A DNA stretch of 64,000 bases from an alpha proteobacterium SCGC AAA536-K22 (GCA_000421325.1 ATWQ01000001.1:1-64000), one strand, 5' to 3'. Counted from the first letter of the stretch, positions 4,268 through 9,561 are shown. Program-made: numbers and translations. The notes: generated from the letters alone by a model not told the origin.

Positions 4268-4579
4268 CTAAAAGTATGAACAAGTATAATTAACCAACTT
4301 TTTAACTTTGACTTTAAATGAGGAATTTTTGCGGACATCGAAGTTCATACCTCCTCTAATTATTTTCCATTCTGGACTATCTAGTAACTTTAGATCTAGT
4401 TCACCTGAAATTATCTCCATTATTTCTTTTGATTGGGTGCTGAATTCATATTCACCTGGAAGCATAACTCCAAGAGTTTTTTTTGATCCGTCTTGAAATG
4501 TAATATTACGACTAATTACATTTCCATTAAAATAAATGTTTGCTAGCTTTTCGACAGTTACATTTTCATAATTGTTCAT
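4268..4579 (-). CDS. ppnP: Pyrimidine/purine nucleoside phosphorylase
   Basis: The 103-aa single-domain cupin matches PpnP/YaiE (DUF1255), which phosphorolyses several nucleosides to base and ribose-1-phosphate. Family marks are the N-terminal LANIYFNGNVISRNI, the central GVMLPGEYEFST and the C-terminal FDVRKNSSFKVKV. Length is the usual 90-105 aa. It is the first gene of a two-gene minus-strand unit with the flavoprotein and is divergent from the small gene at 4719. Role: nucleoside salvage. Confidence 0.85.
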   Translation of the reverse strand: MNNYENVTVEKLANIYFNGNVISRNITFQDGSKKTLGVMLPGEYEFSTQSKEIMEIISGELDLKLLDSPEWKIIRGGMNFDVRKNSSFKVKVKKLVNYTCSYF

Positions 4580-5288: not shown

Positions 5289-5690
5289 ATGAATATAGAG
5301 GGTGGATGTTATTGTGGTGAAATTAGGTATGTCTCTAATGGAGATTCTCAAGCTTCAGTACAGTGTCATTGTAGGCAATGTCAATACATTACTGGAGGAC
5401 ATCCAAACGTATTAATGATTATGCCTTTAGATGGCTTTAAATTTGTATCAGGTAAACCTCAAGAATTTAAAAGAAGTGATTTAGAAAATGCTGTTACTCG
5501 TTTGTTTTGTAGTAAATGCGGTACTGCTATTGGAACTCGAAATCCAATGAGGCCAAATTCAATTATTTTAAAAGTTGGAACCTTTGATGATCCAACTATT
5601 TTTGAACCCGAAATAGCTATATTTACTTCTGATAAACAAAAATTTCATTATATTGGCGATAATGTAAAGTCTTTTGATAAAAGGCCTTGA
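5289..5690 (+). CDS. GFA-family (formaldehyde-activating-like) zinc protein
   Basis: The 133-aa protein has the complete zinc-ligand pattern of the GFA/CENP-V fold: CYC at residues 7-9, CHCRQC at 26-31 and CSKC at 74-77. GFA itself condenses formaldehyde with glutathione, but most family members have unknown substrates, so I call only the family. The start has tttggag 8 bp upstream. It is followed after 18 bp by the GT2 gene on the same strand. Confidence 0.82.
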   Translation: MNIEGGCYCGEIRYVSNGDSQASVQCHCRQCQYITGGHPNVLMIMPLDGFKFVSGKPQEFKRSDLENAVTRLFCSKCGTAIGTRNPMRPNSIILKVGTFDDPTIFEPEIAIFTSDKQKFHYIGDNVKSFDKRP

Positions 5691-5708: not shown

Positions 5709-6569
5709 ATGACATATAAGTGTGCCATAGAAGATATTTCTGTTGTAATTCCGACGTTTAACAGACGTAATTTATTAAAAAGAGCAATCCATTCTGTTAT
5801 AAAACAAACTATTGAACCTAGAGAAATTATTGTTATTGATAACGGTTCAACTGATCAAACTTATCAAATGGTATCATCATTATTTCCAGATATAAATTAT
5901 TTTACTGAAAAAAAAAGAGGTGTAAGTGCTGCTAGAAATAAAGGAATCATAGAAAGTAAATCAAAATGGATTGCCTTCTTAGATTCCGATGATACTTGGG
6001 AACCAAAAAAATTAGAAAAACAGTTGGAATTTTCTCTACTTAATCAGAATAAATATAGACTTATTCACACTGATGAAATTTGGTATAGAAATAATAAATT
6101 TTTAAACCAATTAAATAAACATAAAAAATCAGGCGGAGATATATTCAAAAACTCTCTTAAATTGTGTTGTATTTCTCCAAGTAGTGCTTTTGTTAACAAG
6201 CAAGTTTTTTACGATTATGGCTTATTTGACGAGAATTTAGAGGTTTGCGAAGATTATGATATGTGGATAAGAATAACCTCAAAAGAAGAAGTTGGATTCT
6301 TAGATAGCCCATTAGTGTTAAAATATGGAGGACATAGTGACCAACTATCTAAAAAATTTTGGGGAATGGACAGATTTAGGATAGAAGCATTAGAAAAAAA
6401 TTTAAAAAATAAATGTTTTACAAAAATACAAAAAAAAATTGTTCTAGATATTTTAATTGAAAAACTAACCATAGTTTCCAATGGTGCTCAGAAAAGAGGA
6501 AATAACGACACTTTTAAAAAATATAGTGATAAACTTCAATACTGGTCAATAGAGTTAGATAAAATTTAA
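5709..6569 (+). CDS. Family 2 glycosyltransferase
   Basis: The 286-aa protein has a GT-A domain: VVIPTFNRRNLLKRAI near the N terminus, IVIDNGSTDQT for nucleotide-sugar binding, and the metal-binding LDSDD at residues 91-95. CEDYDMWIRI (about 180) fits the catalytic-base region of the family. No transmembrane segment. It ends 1 bp before the nucleosidase-like gene, so it is in the same transcript as the SPL group, although its function may be separate. Acceptor unknown. Confidence 0.85.
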   Translation: MTYKCAIEDISVVIPTFNRRNLLKRAIHSVIKQTIEPREIIVIDNGSTDQTYQMVSSLFPDINYFTEKKRGVSAARNKGIIESKSKWIAFLDSDDTWEPKKLEKQLEFSLLNQNKYRLIHTDEIWYRNNKFLNQLNKHKKSGGDIFKNSLKLCCISPSSAFVNKQVFYDYGLFDENLEVCEDYDMWIRITSKEEVGFLDSPLVLKYGGHSDQLSKKFWGMDRFRIEALEKNLKNKCFTKIQKKIVLDILIEKLTIVSNGAQKRGNNDTFKKYSDKLQYWSIELDKI

Positions 6570-6570
6570 A

Positions 6571-7422
6571 ATGATTAAGAATAATTTTTTAAAAAAAACA
6601 TCAGTAAGATGGGTTGTCGCTCTCAAAGAAGAAGCTGAAGTAATTTTAGATAATTATAAAATGGTGCTTGTAAATGAAAAAACTTTGTACCCAATTTATA
6701 AGAATGTTGAAGAAACACATTGGCTTACCTTATCTGGAATAGGTAGGCATAATTCCGCAGCTTCCACTTCATATCTTTACACGATAAGTAAAGCATCTAA
6801 ATGGACTTCATGGATCAATGTGGGTATTGCTGGATCTGGAAAAGGGGATTATGGAAATATATATCTAGTAGATAAGATTTTTAATCAAAACGCTAATACC
6901 ACATATCCAGCAACCATGCCTAAATCTAATTTATCTAAGATGACTCTATTAACAACGGATATCCCGATAACGGACTATTCTTCAAAGGAATTAATAGATA
7001 TGGAAGGAAGTGCATTTTTTGATATAGCCAGTAAATTAACAACAAAAGAATTCATCTGTATTATGAAAATTGTTTCTGATGGCCCTAGTAATGATATTAA
7101 ACAATTAAATAAACTAAAGATAATTCAATTGGTGAAGTCTAATCTTAGTAAGATTAGTGAAGTTATTTCATATTATGAAAAACTTTCTGAAAATGAAAAT
7201 CAAATTAGAGCAAAGCCTTACATTTTTTATAAAATATCATCAAATTGGCATTTTTCAGTAACTCAACGAACCCAATTGGAGAATTTATTAAGACGTCTTA
7301 GAGTTTTTTGTGGTAATGACGATATTATGGAATTAATTAAACAATGTGAAAATTCAAGTTTTGTAATCAATGCTTTAAATAATAAAATTAAAGGTAACAA
7401 GGTTAACTGGAGCGACGTTTGA
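6571..7422 (+). CDS. MTA/SAH-nucleosidase-like phosphorylase-superfamily protein
   Basis: The first 200 of 283 residues resemble the PNP/UDP/MTA-SAH nucleosidase fold: VVALKEEAEVIL, NVGIAGSG at 83-90 and IDMEGSAFFDIAS with Glu145 in the ribose-binding MEG motif. The last 80 residues are an extra domain I do not recognise (SNWHFSVTQRTQLENLLRRL), rich in basic helices. The stop overlaps the TTG start of the SPL-like gene, indicating translational coupling. I infer a nucleoside- or base-cleaving role linked to the radical SAM partner, for example removal of 5'-deoxyadenosine or a damaged nucleoside. This is not shown. Confidence 0.65.
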   Translation: MIKNNFLKKTSVRWVVALKEEAEVILDNYKMVLVNEKTLYPIYKNVEETHWLTLSGIGRHNSAASTSYLYTISKASKWTSWINVGIAGSGKGDYGNIYLVDKIFNQNANTTYPATMPKSNLSKMTLLTTDIPITDYSSKELIDMEGSAFFDIASKLTTKEFICIMKIVSDGPSNDIKQLNKLKIIQLVKSNLSKISEVISYYEKLSENENQIRAKPYIFYKISSNWHFSVTQRTQLENLLRRLRVFCGNDDIMELIKQCENSSFVINALNNKIKGNKVNWSDV

Positions 7423-8411
7423 TTGAAACAATTTACATTGAAAAAAAAATAAAAAATCATCCTAGAACTAAATTTATCCTGAAAAAGTTCAAAAAGGCTC
7501 GTGTTTTAGAAATAGATAAATATGCTGAAATTTTTAATAAGCGAAATCAAAATTTCAGAATACAAAAAGCTAACCCTGATTTAATACTTGCACATAAAAA
7601 TGATGGTTTTGTTCTCCCTGCTCCAGAAGGGTTTGGAATAGGATCTTCAGAAAACTTTTATTTTTCACACATGTACAATTGTATTTATGACTGTAGATAT
7701 TGTTTTCTTCAAGGCATGTTCTCTTCAGCAAATTATGTTATTTTTGTTAATTTTGAAGATTTTGATACTAGTATAAAAAATGTTATCAATAAGAATATTA
7801 ATTCTAAAATAACTTTTTTTTCTGGTTACGACTGCGATTCACTTGCCCTTGAAAATGTAACAGGGTTTGCAAAACATATATTGCCACTATTTCAACAATA
7901 CCCAGAAGTTGATATTGAGTTTAGAACGAAAAGTATTCAAAGAGAGCCATTTATGTCAATAGAACCAATGAAAAACGTAATTATGGCATATAGTCTTATG
8001 CCAGACTTGATGTCGTCTTCATTAGACAATAAAGTTCCTTCAATATCAAAACGCATTCAAGTTATTTCTGATTTAGCTTTAAGAGGTTGGAAAATTGGAC
8101 TAAGATTTGATCCATTGATTCATGGAGAAGATTGGAAATCTTTATATGAAAATTTATTAGAAAAGGTTTACAACTCAATACCGTTGGAGTCCATTCACTC
8201 CGTTAGTGTAGGGCCATTACGTTTTCCAAAAAAAATGTTTAAGGATATTTTAAAACTTTATCCGGATGAACCTTTGTTCACTAGCCCTTTAGCTAGTAGT
8301 AAAGGTGTAGTTTCTTATGATGAAAAAATTGAAGAAGAAATGTCATCTTTTTGTAAAAATCTTACATTAAAATATTTGGATAATAGTCAAATTTTTAGAT
8401 GTTATGCTTAA
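7419..8411 (+). CDS. Spore photoproduct lyase-like radical SAM protein
   Basis: The 330-aa protein carries the SPL cluster motif CX3CX2C at Cys88, Cys92 and Cys95 (YNCIYDCRYCFLQGM). A further cysteine at 139 (GYDCDSLALENVTG) lies 51 residues later, matching the spacing and context of the conserved H-atom-donor cysteine of Bacillus SPL. The family uses SAM to reverse 5-thyminyl-5,6-dihydrothymine in spore DNA. Members in non-sporulators have unproven substrates. TTG start, overlapping the previous stop; the next gene, an SDR, follows after 18 bp. DNA-photoproduct or related base repair is a reasonable inference. Confidence 0.75.
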   Translation: MIETIYIEKKIKNHPRTKFILKKFKKARVLEIDKYAEIFNKRNQNFRIQKANPDLILAHKNDGFVLPAPEGFGIGSSENFYFSHMYNCIYDCRYCFLQGMFSSANYVIFVNFEDFDTSIKNVINKNINSKITFFSGYDCDSLALENVTGFAKHILPLFQQYPEVDIEFRTKSIQREPFMSIEPMKNVIMAYSLMPDLMSSSLDNKVPSISKRIQVISDLALRGWKIGLRFDPLIHGEDWKSLYENLLEKVYNSIPLESIHSVSVGPLRFPKKMFKDILKLYPDEPLFTSPLASSKGVVSYDEKIEEEMSSFCKNLTLKYLDNSQIFRCYA

Positions 8412-8429
8412 TTATATTGGTATAAATTT

Positions 8430-9134
8430 ATGAAAGATAAATGTATTTTAGTTACAGGAAGTTCTAGTGGAATAGGTGAGGCGATAACTACTAAACTACT
8501 TGATTTGGGAGCCAAAGTATTCGGAATTGCTCGAGATCATAAAAAATCTGCAATAAAAAATGATAATTATATTACATATACTTTTGATATTAGCGACTTA
8601 AGAAACTTAGAAAAAAATATAAAATCAATATTAAAAGACTATCCGGAAATTAATGGTTTAGTAAGTAATGCAGGTTATGGTGAGTTTGGTCCTCTCGAAA
8701 ATTTTTCTATCGATCAAATTGATAATTTTATTTCAATGAACTTAACTTCTCACTTAGTTATAACTAAAAGCTTACTCCCACATTTCAAAAAAATAAAAAA
8801 AGGGGATATAATATTTATAGGATCTGAAGCTGGATTGTCAGGAGCAAAAAATGGAAGTCTTTATTGTAGCTCAAAATTTGGCTTAAGGGGTTTTGCACAA
8901 TCATTAAGTAAAGATGTTGCAAGTAATAATATTCGTGTATGCATAATAAATGCAGGTATGGTTAGAACAAATTTCTTTGAAAATTTAAATTTCTTGCCTG
9001 GGGATGATATAGAAAACGCTATAAGTGTTGATGACATATCAAATTCGGTTGCTAATATTTTAACACTTAATAGAAATACGGTTGTAGATGAAATTAATTT
9101 GTCGCCAGCAAAAAAAGTAGTTAGGTTTAAATAA
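8430..9134 (+). CDS. SDR-family oxidoreductase (SPL-linked)
   Basis: This 234-aa classical short-chain dehydrogenase has the cofactor motif VTGSSSGIG (8-16), the NAG motif (VSNAGYG), a catalytic Ser in FIGSEAG and YCSSK. It lacks a membrane segment. It follows the SPL-like gene by 18 bp and precedes a secreted rhodanese by 19 bp. The conserved neighbourhood suggests it belongs to the SPL/nucleosidase run rather than to central metabolism, but the substrate is unknown. Confidence 0.8.
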   Translation: MKDKCILVTGSSSGIGEAITTKLLDLGAKVFGIARDHKKSAIKNDNYITYTFDISDLRNLEKNIKSILKDYPEINGLVSNAGYGEFGPLENFSIDQIDNFISMNLTSHLVITKSLLPHFKKIKKGDIIFIGSEAGLSGAKNGSLYCSSKFGLRGFAQSLSKDVASNNIRVCIINAGMVRTNFFENLNFLPGDDIENAISVDDISNSVANILTLNRNTVVDEINLSPAKKVVRFK

Positions 9135-9153: not shown

Positions 9154-9561
9154 ATGGTAAATAGAACGTATATACTTTTTATAATCTTTTTTTTAATTAT
9201 TAGATCTGCATTTGCAGAAGTTATTGATATAAATAATGATCAAATAAAAGAATTAATGAAAAGAAACACTCCAATAATAGATATCAGAACAAGTCCTGAA
9301 TGGGATCAGACTGGGGTTATTCCTAATAGTTTGTTACTCACTTTTTTTGATGATAATGGAAAATATAATTTTCAAAGTTGGTACAATAAATTAATAAACA
9401 TTACTAAAAAAGATCAGCCTATTATTTTGATTTGTAGAAGTGGCAGAAGAACTAAAATAGTTGCGGAAATGATAAATAAAAAATTTGATTATGAAGTATA
9501 CAATGCAAAATATGGAATCAAATCTTGGATTAAATCTAATTTGAAAACTGTAAAACCTTAA
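9154..9561 (+). CDS. Exported rhodanese-domain protein
   Basis: This 135-aa protein has a clear Sec signal peptide (hydrophobic residues 5-17, cleavage after SAFA). It is followed by a single rhodanese domain with the DIRTSPEW motif and an active-site loop CRSGRR with Cys94. It is therefore a periplasmic sulfurtransferase-like protein. It ends only 4 bp from the convergent class V aminotransferase gene, leaving no room for a separate terminator. Confidence 0.82.
   Translation: MVNRTYILFIIFFLIIRSAFAEVIDINNDQIKELMKRNTPIIDIRTSPEWDQTGVIPNSLLLTFFDDNGKYNFQSWYNKLINITKKDQPIILICRSGRRTKIVAEMINKKFDYEVYNAKYGIKSWIKSNLKTVKP

What the first reader, a model, noticed from the sequence alone, without database searches (positions are those of the whole stretch)
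6571..9134. SPL-like radical SAM enzyme coupled to a nucleosidase-like protein and an SDR
A spore photoproduct lyase homologue keeps the CX3CX2C motif and the H-donor cysteine at the right spacing, yet nothing here suggests sporulation. It is translationally coupled (overlapping stop/start) to an MTA/SAH-nucleosidase-like protein with an unknown 80-aa C-terminal domain, and an SDR follows after 18 bp. This may be a base- or nucleoside-repair system for sunlit surface waters, with the nucleosidase clearing 5'-deoxyadenosine or a damaged nucleoside.
Basis: partly seen in the sequence, partly recalled or inferred. Interest (0 to 1): 0.65.

Follow-up and report, generated by a model that had tools for sequence, protein, structure and literature searches.

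The report
Radical enzyme with dedicated nucleosidase partner
Unrelated bacteria (ocean surface, predatory, human-associated) share a small gene set in which a DNA-repair look-alike radical enzyme sits beside, and once is fused to, its own adenosine-cleaving partner, usually with a reductase; it probably makes or modifies a small molecule rather than repairing sunlight damage, and its product is unknown.

Summary
Two corrections. First, Cys139 is not the SPL hydrogen donor: three alignments put the SplB cysteine on Tyr137 and Cys139 on a serine. Phe96 also replaces the SplB relay tyrosine, and the basic C-terminal segment is shortened. Second, a GT2 glycosyltransferase (5709-6569) belongs to the set.

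The coupling is real and wide. NUC-SPL with a carbonyl reductase recurs in marine Alphaproteobacteria (SDR), Bdellovibrionota (aldo/keto reductase) and human-gut contigs (SDR); in Fusobacterium NUC and SPL are one 623-aa protein followed by an SDR. GT2 accompanies it in most proteobacterial and bdellovibrionotal loci. Predators and anaerobes argue against a sunlight-repair system.

NUC has a confident MTA/SAH-nucleosidase fold with the catalytic triad (Glu21, Glu145, Asp170) plus a helical C-terminal domain. One SAR116 clade lost the triad yet keeps the gene under purifying selection.

Best reading: a SAM-consuming, SPL-derived radical enzyme with a dedicated nucleosidase and reductase in an unknown biosynthetic or tailoring pathway. 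Substrate and activity are untested.

The parts
5709..6569 (+). GT2 glycosyltransferase, 286 aa, 1 bp upstream of NUC; part of the conserved set
   Evidence: PF00535 E 3.8e-33; directly upstream of NUC in all 56 loci that reach it except L060; same family (>300 bits) next to the AKR in 11 of 16 Bdellovibrionota loci; the family is found strongly in only 4 of 289 alphaproteobacterial genomes, the cluster carriers
6571..7422 (+). NUC: MTA/SAH-nucleosidase-fold protein, 283 aa
   Evidence: AlphaFold2 pLDDT 90.2, Foldseek to MTANs E 5.7e-12, profile hits to solved MTANs 1.8e-6; triad E21/E145/D170 aligned with MTAN E12/E174/D197 and invariant in 36 intact members
7210..7422 (+). C-terminal helical domain of NUC (about aa 214-283), motif W-H-F-S/T-x-S/T-Q
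   Evidence: helices 217-225, 230-243, 249-256, 262-275 in the model; motif shared with Bdellovibrionota and kept in members whose nucleosidase site is lost; absent in L053-L055
7419..8411 (+). SPL-fold radical SAM enzyme, 330 aa, TTG start overlapping the NUC stop by 4 bp
   Evidence: PF20903 E 5.5e-18; TM 0.82 to 4FHC/4FHG; tree places it with other cluster-type SPLs, apart from SplB and TIGR03886
7680..7703 (+). Radical SAM cluster motif C88-x3-C92-x2-C95; Phe96 follows where SplB has the relay Tyr (Gt Y98 / Bs Y99)
   Evidence: sequence; alignment; SplB roles from PMC3742179
7827..7838 (+). Y137-D138-C139-D140: Tyr137 occupies the SplB H-donor cysteine position; Asp140 is conserved in all SPL families aligned
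8430..9134 (+). SDR-family oxidoreductase, 234 aa
   Evidence: PF00106 E 1.8e-45; downstream of SPL in 54 of 59 loci and after the Fusobacterium fusion; an AKR takes this role in Bdellovibrionota
5289..5690 (+). GFA-family protein, likely same transcript, lineage-specific (window clade only), not part of the core
   Evidence: PF04828 E 9.3e-28; seen only in window-like loci
9154..9561 (+). Rhodanese-like protein, 19 bp after the SDR, found in part of SAR116 only, not part of the core
   Evidence: PF00581 E 3.2e-14

Best explanation
A small metabolic module, not a DNA-repair unit. The SPL-fold radical SAM enzyme cleaves SAM and, lacking SplB's cysteine-tyrosine relay, does not regenerate it; each turnover therefore leaves an adenosine-containing product, either free 5'-deoxyadenosine or, my first guess, a 5'-deoxyadenosyl adduct on the substrate. 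The dedicated partner NUC, held next to the radical enzyme through its C-terminal domain or by fusion, removes adenine. If the product is an adduct this exposes a reducing ribose end, which the SDR (AKR in Bdellovibrionota) reduces and, where present, the GT2 enzyme glycosylates. This is the logic of HpnH-HpnG-(reductase)-HpnI in hopanoid side-chain synthesis, done by a different radical SAM family on a different, unknown substrate. Shown: gene set, folds, catalytic triad, loss of SplB relay residues, cross-phylum conservation, fusion, purifying selection. Inferred: SAM consumption, which nucleoside NUC cleaves, order of steps, substrate.
For: Gene set conserved: GT2-NUC-SPL-SDR in marine Alphaproteobacteria; NUC-SPL divergent from AKR, mostly with GT2, in Bdellovibrionota; NUC-SPL-SDR in gut contig L080 and a NUC-SPL fusion followed by SDR in Fusobacterium. 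Reductase present in most members but non-homologous between groups, as expected if the chemistry (carbonyl reduction) is what is selected. SplB donor Cys replaced by Tyr or Glu and, in the window, relay Tyr by Phe; SplB C141A and Y99F mutants consume about one SAM per turnover (PMC3742179). No Cys in residues 1-87, so the clostridial-type donor position is empty too (sequence; PMC5368176). MTAN triad intact in all but one alphaproteobacterial clade and L081. A separate housekeeping nucleosidase exists in the window's genome (186 aa) and most others checked, so NUC looks dedicated. SPL's basic C-terminal segment is shortened by 6 residues. L054 has a carbamoyltransferase gene inserted between NUC and SPL, a natural-product-type tailoring enzyme.
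Against: No substrate, product or activity is known. One SAR116 clade (L044, L046, L047, L049-L051, L056, L057) has lost E145 and D170 of NUC but keeps GT2, SPL and SDR, and L081 has lost most of the nucleosidase domain: an obligatory hydrolysis step would then need another nucleosidase. L059 and L053-L055 lack an adjacent reductase, L060 lacks both reductase and GT2, and L064/L065 have neither nearby. GT2 is absent from the anaerobe loci, so glycosylation is not universal. SPL homologues elsewhere (TIGR03886) do sit by DNA-repair genes.
Confidence: 0.42

Rival explanations
1. Same non-repair module, but NUC only clears free 5'-deoxyadenosine (and perhaps MTA/SAH) to relieve product inhibition of the radical enzyme; the SDR/AKR and GT2 act on the radical enzyme's real product, not on a ribose end.
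For: Loss of the nucleosidase triad is tolerated in one SAR116 clade and the nucleosidase domain is largely lost in L081 while the rest stays, as expected for a helper activity that housekeeping nucleosidase can cover; the pseudo-enzyme is still under purifying selection (dN/dS 0.15-0.39 against 0.19-0.27 for intact), so NUC has a second, structural role; SplB relay residues are missing, so 5'-dA should build up.
Against: Radical SAM enzymes rarely carry a dedicated, once fused, nucleosidase; the reductase's presence is not explained by this alone.
Confidence: 0.3
2. A DNA- or nucleotide-repair system for a lesion other than the spore photoproduct, with the nucleosidase removing a damaged nucleoside.
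For: SPL fold; other SPL-family proteins lie next to uracil-DNA glycosylase and dinB in Deinococcus and a photolyase in Streptomyces; splB homologues are reported as LexA-regulated in alpha- and beta-Proteobacteria (PMC3323433).
Against: Donor Cys and relay Tyr gone, basic C-terminal segment shortened; partners are a glycosyltransferase and carbonyl reductases; present in a Fusobacterium, gut contigs and predators; no LexA-type box in the window; tree separates it from SplB and TIGR03886 (support 100/99).
Confidence: 0.13
3. Salvage or breakdown of a modified nucleoside (analogous to queuosine salvage by QueK and QueL): NUC frees the base, the radical enzyme cleaves it.
For: QueC-QueE-QueD genes lie directly upstream of GT2-NUC-SPL in the L053/L055/L131/L136 lineage; Fusobacterium is listed as a queuosine-precursor consumer (PMC11130926).
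Against: The Que genes are next to the set in that single lineage only; QueK is a different nucleoside hydrolase family (IPR023186); no solved radical SAM enzyme other than SPL is hit by the profile up to E 10; marine lineages with QueCED make queuosine de novo, so salvage explains neither GT2 nor reductase.
Confidence: 0.07

Closest known systems
Spore photoproduct lyase SplB (TIGR04070 / PF20903; PDB 4FHC, 4FHG, 4RH0)
   Same: Fold (TM 0.82), CX3CX2C motif, tyrosine inside the motif (Y94), conserved Asp140
   Different: Donor Cys replaced by Tyr137 (Glu in Bdellovibrionota), relay Tyr replaced by Phe96 in the window, basic C-terminal segment shortened, always beside a nucleosidase, score 79 bits against a cut-off of 400
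TIGR03886 'spore photoproduct lyase family protein'
   Same: Family-level similarity (82.5 bits, E 3.2e-23)
   Different: Cut-off is 437.55 bits; separate branch in the tree; its neighbours are DNA-repair genes, not NUC
MTA/SAH nucleosidase and futalosine hydrolase (PNP_UDP_1 superfamily)
   Same: Fold and catalytic triad; chlamydial CT263 and H. pylori futalosine hydrolase are among the matches
   Different: Extra helical C-terminal domain; below curated cut-offs; coupled or fused to a radical SAM enzyme; one clade is a maintained pseudo-enzyme
HpnH-HpnG-HpnI hopanoid side-chain pathway (PMC12583986)
   Same: Functional roles: radical SAM adenosylation, nucleosidase, (unknown) reductase, GT-type glycosyltransferase
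   Different: Different radical SAM family; HpnH over cut-off only in the L053 genome among seven checked, so the window's genome, Bdellovibrionota and Fusobacterium do not make adenosylhopane this way. Analogy only
Aminofutalosine synthase MqnE with MqnB-type nucleosidase
   Same: SAM's adenosyl group is built in and adenine then removed by an MTAN-like enzyme (established knowledge); MqnE is among the weaker fold matches
   Different: No menaquinone genes seen; SPL lineage, not MqnE

Membership tests
Spore photoproduct lyase (SplB, TIGR04070) | Radical SAM CX3CX2C motif in an SPL fold | tested here: met
   C88/C92/C95; TM 0.82 to 4FHC
Spore photoproduct lyase (SplB, TIGR04070) | Catalytic H-donor cysteine at Bs C141 / Gt C140 position | tested here: not met
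   Tyr137 there; Cys139 aligns with Ser
Spore photoproduct lyase (SplB, TIGR04070) | Alternative clostridial-type donor Cys (C74 of SPL(Ca), before the cluster motif) | tested here: not met
   No Cys in residues 1-87 of the window protein; position from PMC5368176
Spore photoproduct lyase (SplB, TIGR04070) | Relay tyrosine Bs Y99 / Gt Y98 | tested here: not met
   Phe96 in the window and all alphaproteobacterial members aligned; Tyr in Fusobacterium, gut and most Bdellovibrionota members
Spore photoproduct lyase (SplB, TIGR04070) | Family score over curated cut-off | tested here: not met
   79.1 of 400 bits; PF20903 is met, 65.4 of 27 bits
Spore photoproduct lyase (SplB, TIGR04070) | Repairs spore photoproduct in DNA | not testable with these tools
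   needs an enzyme assay
MTA/SAH nucleosidase superfamily | Fold of the phosphorylase superfamily | tested here: met
   Foldseek E 5.7e-12 to MTAN
MTA/SAH nucleosidase superfamily | Catalytic triad E12/E174/D197 (E. coli numbering) | tested here: met
   E21/E145/D170, invariant in 36 intact members; not met in the L044-L057 pseudo-enzyme clade
MTA/SAH nucleosidase superfamily | Score over curated MTAN/PNP_UDP_1 cut-offs | tested here: not met
   PF01048 16.4 of 25.1 bits; 26 of 36 members match at E<=0.01
MTA/SAH nucleosidase superfamily | Cleaves 5'-substituted adenosines | not testable with these tools
   needs an assay
Hopanoid HpnH/HpnG pathway | Adenosylhopane synthase HpnH (TIGR03470) | tested here: not met
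   Window genome best hit 28 of 225 bits; only the L053 genome is over the cut-off
Queuine salvage QueK/QueL | QueK-type nucleoside hydrolase (IPR023186) | tested here: not met
   NUC has an MTAN fold; QueK family from PMC11130926
Queuine salvage QueK/QueL | QueL-type radical SAM lyase | tested here: inconclusive
   No non-SPL solved enzyme in the profile search up to E 10; no QueL reference sequence was compared directly

The most novel reading that the evidence does not exclude
A previously undescribed biosynthetic pathway shared by SAR116 and other marine Alphaproteobacteria, Bdellovibrionota, Fusobacterium and gut bacteria, in which an SPL-derived radical SAM enzyme transfers a 5'-deoxyadenosyl group to a substrate, a dedicated nucleosidase strips adenine, and a reductase (with a glycosyltransferase in many) finishes a ribitol-type head group: a second, independent invention of the HpnH/HpnG strategy.
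Probability: 0.25. Interest if true: 0.85.

Novelty: new variant of a known kind. Interest (0 to 1): 0.6.

Why it matters
SPL is a textbook case of a radical SAM enzyme that repairs DNA and recycles SAM. Here a sister family has lost the residues for that trick and gained a dedicated nucleosidase, once by outright fusion. That gives a directly testable case of how a repair fold was re-used, probably for small-molecule chemistry. Genes of this family match 'spore photoproduct lyase' models, a name likely to mislead. If the adduct model holds, it would add a second family of 5'-deoxyadenosyl-transferring enzymes and an unknown metabolite in abundant ocean bacteria and in predatory bacteria. The maintained pseudo-nucleosidase clade points to a structural partner role that can be tested by complex prediction and co-purification.

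Tried and rejected
SplB-type H donor at Cys139: rejected by three alignments. Sunlight-specific repair: rejected on distribution and partners. SOS control: no GTTC-N7-GTTC in the window; the promoter scan was no better than shuffles. Viral carriage: no relative in viral contigs; the two 'phage' records with relatives are unverified faecal contigs, so I treat them as probably bacterial. Hopanoid synthesis proper: HpnH lacking in most carriers. Queuosine link: seen next to the set in one lineage only. Papers on this gene set: none found by the terms tried. Phylum-wide sampling of Pseudomonadota found only the window's own genome among 399, so the set is rare outside its main groups.

Full report
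OBSERVATION. The three ORFs are at the stated coordinates on the + strand: 6571-7422 (NUC), 7419-8411 (SPL-like, TTG start, 4-bp overlap) and 8430-9134 (SDR, 18-bp gap). A GT2 glycosyltransferase (5709-6569) ends 1 bp before NUC, and GFA- and rhodanese-type genes flank the set with 18-19 bp gaps, so a longer transcript is likely (inference from spacing). Related contigs identify the window as SAR116-type Alphaproteobacteria (90-92% identical SPL-like proteins).

THE RADICAL SAM PROTEIN. It passes the Pfam SPL cut-off (65 of 27 bits) but is far below the NCBIfam cut-offs for SplB (79 of 400) and for TIGR03886 (82 of 438). The AlphaFold2 model (pLDDT 87) matches solved SPLs at TM about 0.82, with every other fold much weaker. 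It has C88-x3-C92-x2-C95. In the pairwise HMMER alignment, the profile alignment and two MAFFT alignments including B. velezensis SplB, SplB's F-E-A-S-C-T-S-D lines up with F-F-S-G-Y-D-C-D: the donor cysteine falls on Tyr137, Cys139 on the SplB serine, Asp140 on the shared Asp. Cys139 is Ser in L064, L060 and all strong Bdellovibrionota members examined, Thr or Ala in the anaerobe members. The position of Tyr137 is Glu in Bdellovibrionota. SplB's relay tyrosine (Bs Y99) is Phe96 here, though Tyr in Fusobacterium, gut and most Bdellovibrionota members. In B. subtilis SplB, C141A and Y99F give about one 5'-dA per repair, i.e. no SAM recycling (PMC3742179). I infer, without assay, that the window enzyme consumes SAM. 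The donor of clostridial SPL lies before the cluster motif (PMC5368176); the window protein has no cysteine in residues 1-87. The basic stretch KRRYKWGRYGIGKYIY near the SplB C terminus is shortened by six residues and not basic here; from memory this is the DNA-contacting hairpin, which I could not confirm in a held paper.

THE NUCLEOSIDASE. Single-sequence scores are weak (PF01048 16 of 25 bits), but the profile finds solved MTANs (1.8e-6), 26 of 36 members match PNP_UDP_1 individually, and the model (pLDDT 90) has MTANs as its best fold matches at about 1e-11. E21, E145 and D170 line up with MTAN E12, E174 and D197 and are invariant in the 36 members aligned without the degenerate clade; they are also kept in the Bdellovibrionota members examined, Fusobacterium and L080. 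The C-terminal helical domain carries a W/F-H/Y-F-S/T-x-S/T-Q-type motif shared with Bdellovibrionota. In one SAR116 clade (L044, L046, L047, L049-L051, L056, L057) E145 and D170 are lost, yet reading frames are open and dN/dS is 0.15-0.39, close to intact copies (0.19-0.27). In L081 most of the nucleosidase domain is gone (160 aa). Conversely L053-L055 keep the nucleosidase and lack the C-terminal domain. The window's genome has a separate 186-aa nucleosidase, as do most carriers checked, so NUC is not the housekeeping enzyme.

NEIGHBOURHOOD. Of 59 related contigs, SDR follows SPL in 54, and GT2 lies upstream of NUC in 56 of the 57 that reach it. L053-L055 and L059 lack the SDR. L054 has a carbamoyltransferase and a TPR gene inserted between NUC and SPL. 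L064 and L065 have NUC-SPL with a methyltransferase upstream. In Bdellovibrionota 50 of 114 genomes have an SPL-like match; 25 score above 310 bits, and in the strong loci examined NUC-SPL is divergent from an aldo/keto reductase, except L060, with the same GT2 family next to it in 11 of 16. A gut contig, L080, has NUC-SPL-SDR, and L081 has SDR, a NUC remnant and SPL. In Fusobacterium vincentii NUC and SPL are one 623-aa ORF, followed by an SDR. Within the window's order 45 of 136 genomes have the SPL-like gene; in a class sample the GT2 family appears strongly in only four of 289 genomes, three of which show the SPL-like gene and the fourth of which (G155) carries GT2-NUC at a contig end. A tree places all cluster-type SPLs together (93/85), with a Bdellovibrionota-only sister group, and SplB plus TIGR03886 on the other side of a fully supported branch (long branches, so deep order is tentative).

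INTERPRETATION. A natural fusion, tight adjacency across distant phyla and a maintained pseudo-enzyme make the NUC-SPL partnership the firmest conclusion. The partners (carbonyl reductase of two unrelated families; GT2 in many) and the habitats (surface ocean, predators, oral and gut anaerobes) fit metabolism better than UV repair. The hopanoid pathway offers the same four roles: HpnH adds 5'-deoxyadenosyl, HpnG removes adenine, an unidentified enzyme reduces ribosylhopane, HpnI glycosylates (PMC12583986). HpnH itself is missing from most carriers, so this is a working analogy only. The main alternative within the same frame is that NUC merely clears 5'-dA; the tolerated loss of its active site speaks for that. 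I give the adduct version 0.42 as a combined statement (module plus likely route), the clearance version 0.30, repair 0.13, salvage 0.07.

LIMITS. No substrate, product, expression or phenotype is known. Sampling of Fusobacteriota and Bacillota was not possible beyond single records. Some genomes are incomplete, so absences are weak evidence. No QueL sequence was compared directly.

Noticed in passing
L117-L120 (Bdellovibrionota): A sister group of SPL-like proteins without NUC or GT2 nearby; in L117 the gene just upstream encodes a ParB N-terminal domain protein with a 4-bp overlap.
   Followed up: partly
L054:1581-4623: A carbamoyltransferase and a TPR-protein gene are inserted between NUC and SPL.
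   Followed up: partly
L131:7250-8995 and L136:3-1726: QueC-QueE-QueD lie directly upstream of GT2-NUC-SPL in one marine alphaproteobacterial lineage.
   Followed up: partly
L057:6001-6998 and G844:C6:13924-14906: The SPL-like gene appears broken (L057 as two ORFs in one stretch; five stop codons inside the G844 match), by real decay or assembly error.
   Followed up: no
L070 (NZ_CP084075.1): The 2.1-Mb record labelled a Fusobacterium plasmid looks like a chromosome.
   Followed up: no
L080 and L081 (MT835770.1, MT835514.1): Unverified 'bacteriophage' contigs from human faeces carry this set beside ordinary metabolic and transporter genes; probably bacterial DNA.
   Followed up: partly
window 4268-4579 (-): A pyrimidine/purine nucleoside phosphorylase (Ppnp) gene sits 1.1 kb upstream of GT2 on the other strand, near an HI0933-like flavoprotein; seen only in window-like loci.
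   Followed up: no
L063 (G250:C34:57190-58053): A distant SPL-family protein that does have a Cys at the SplB donor position (GCSTD), in another alphaproteobacterial family.
   Followed up: no
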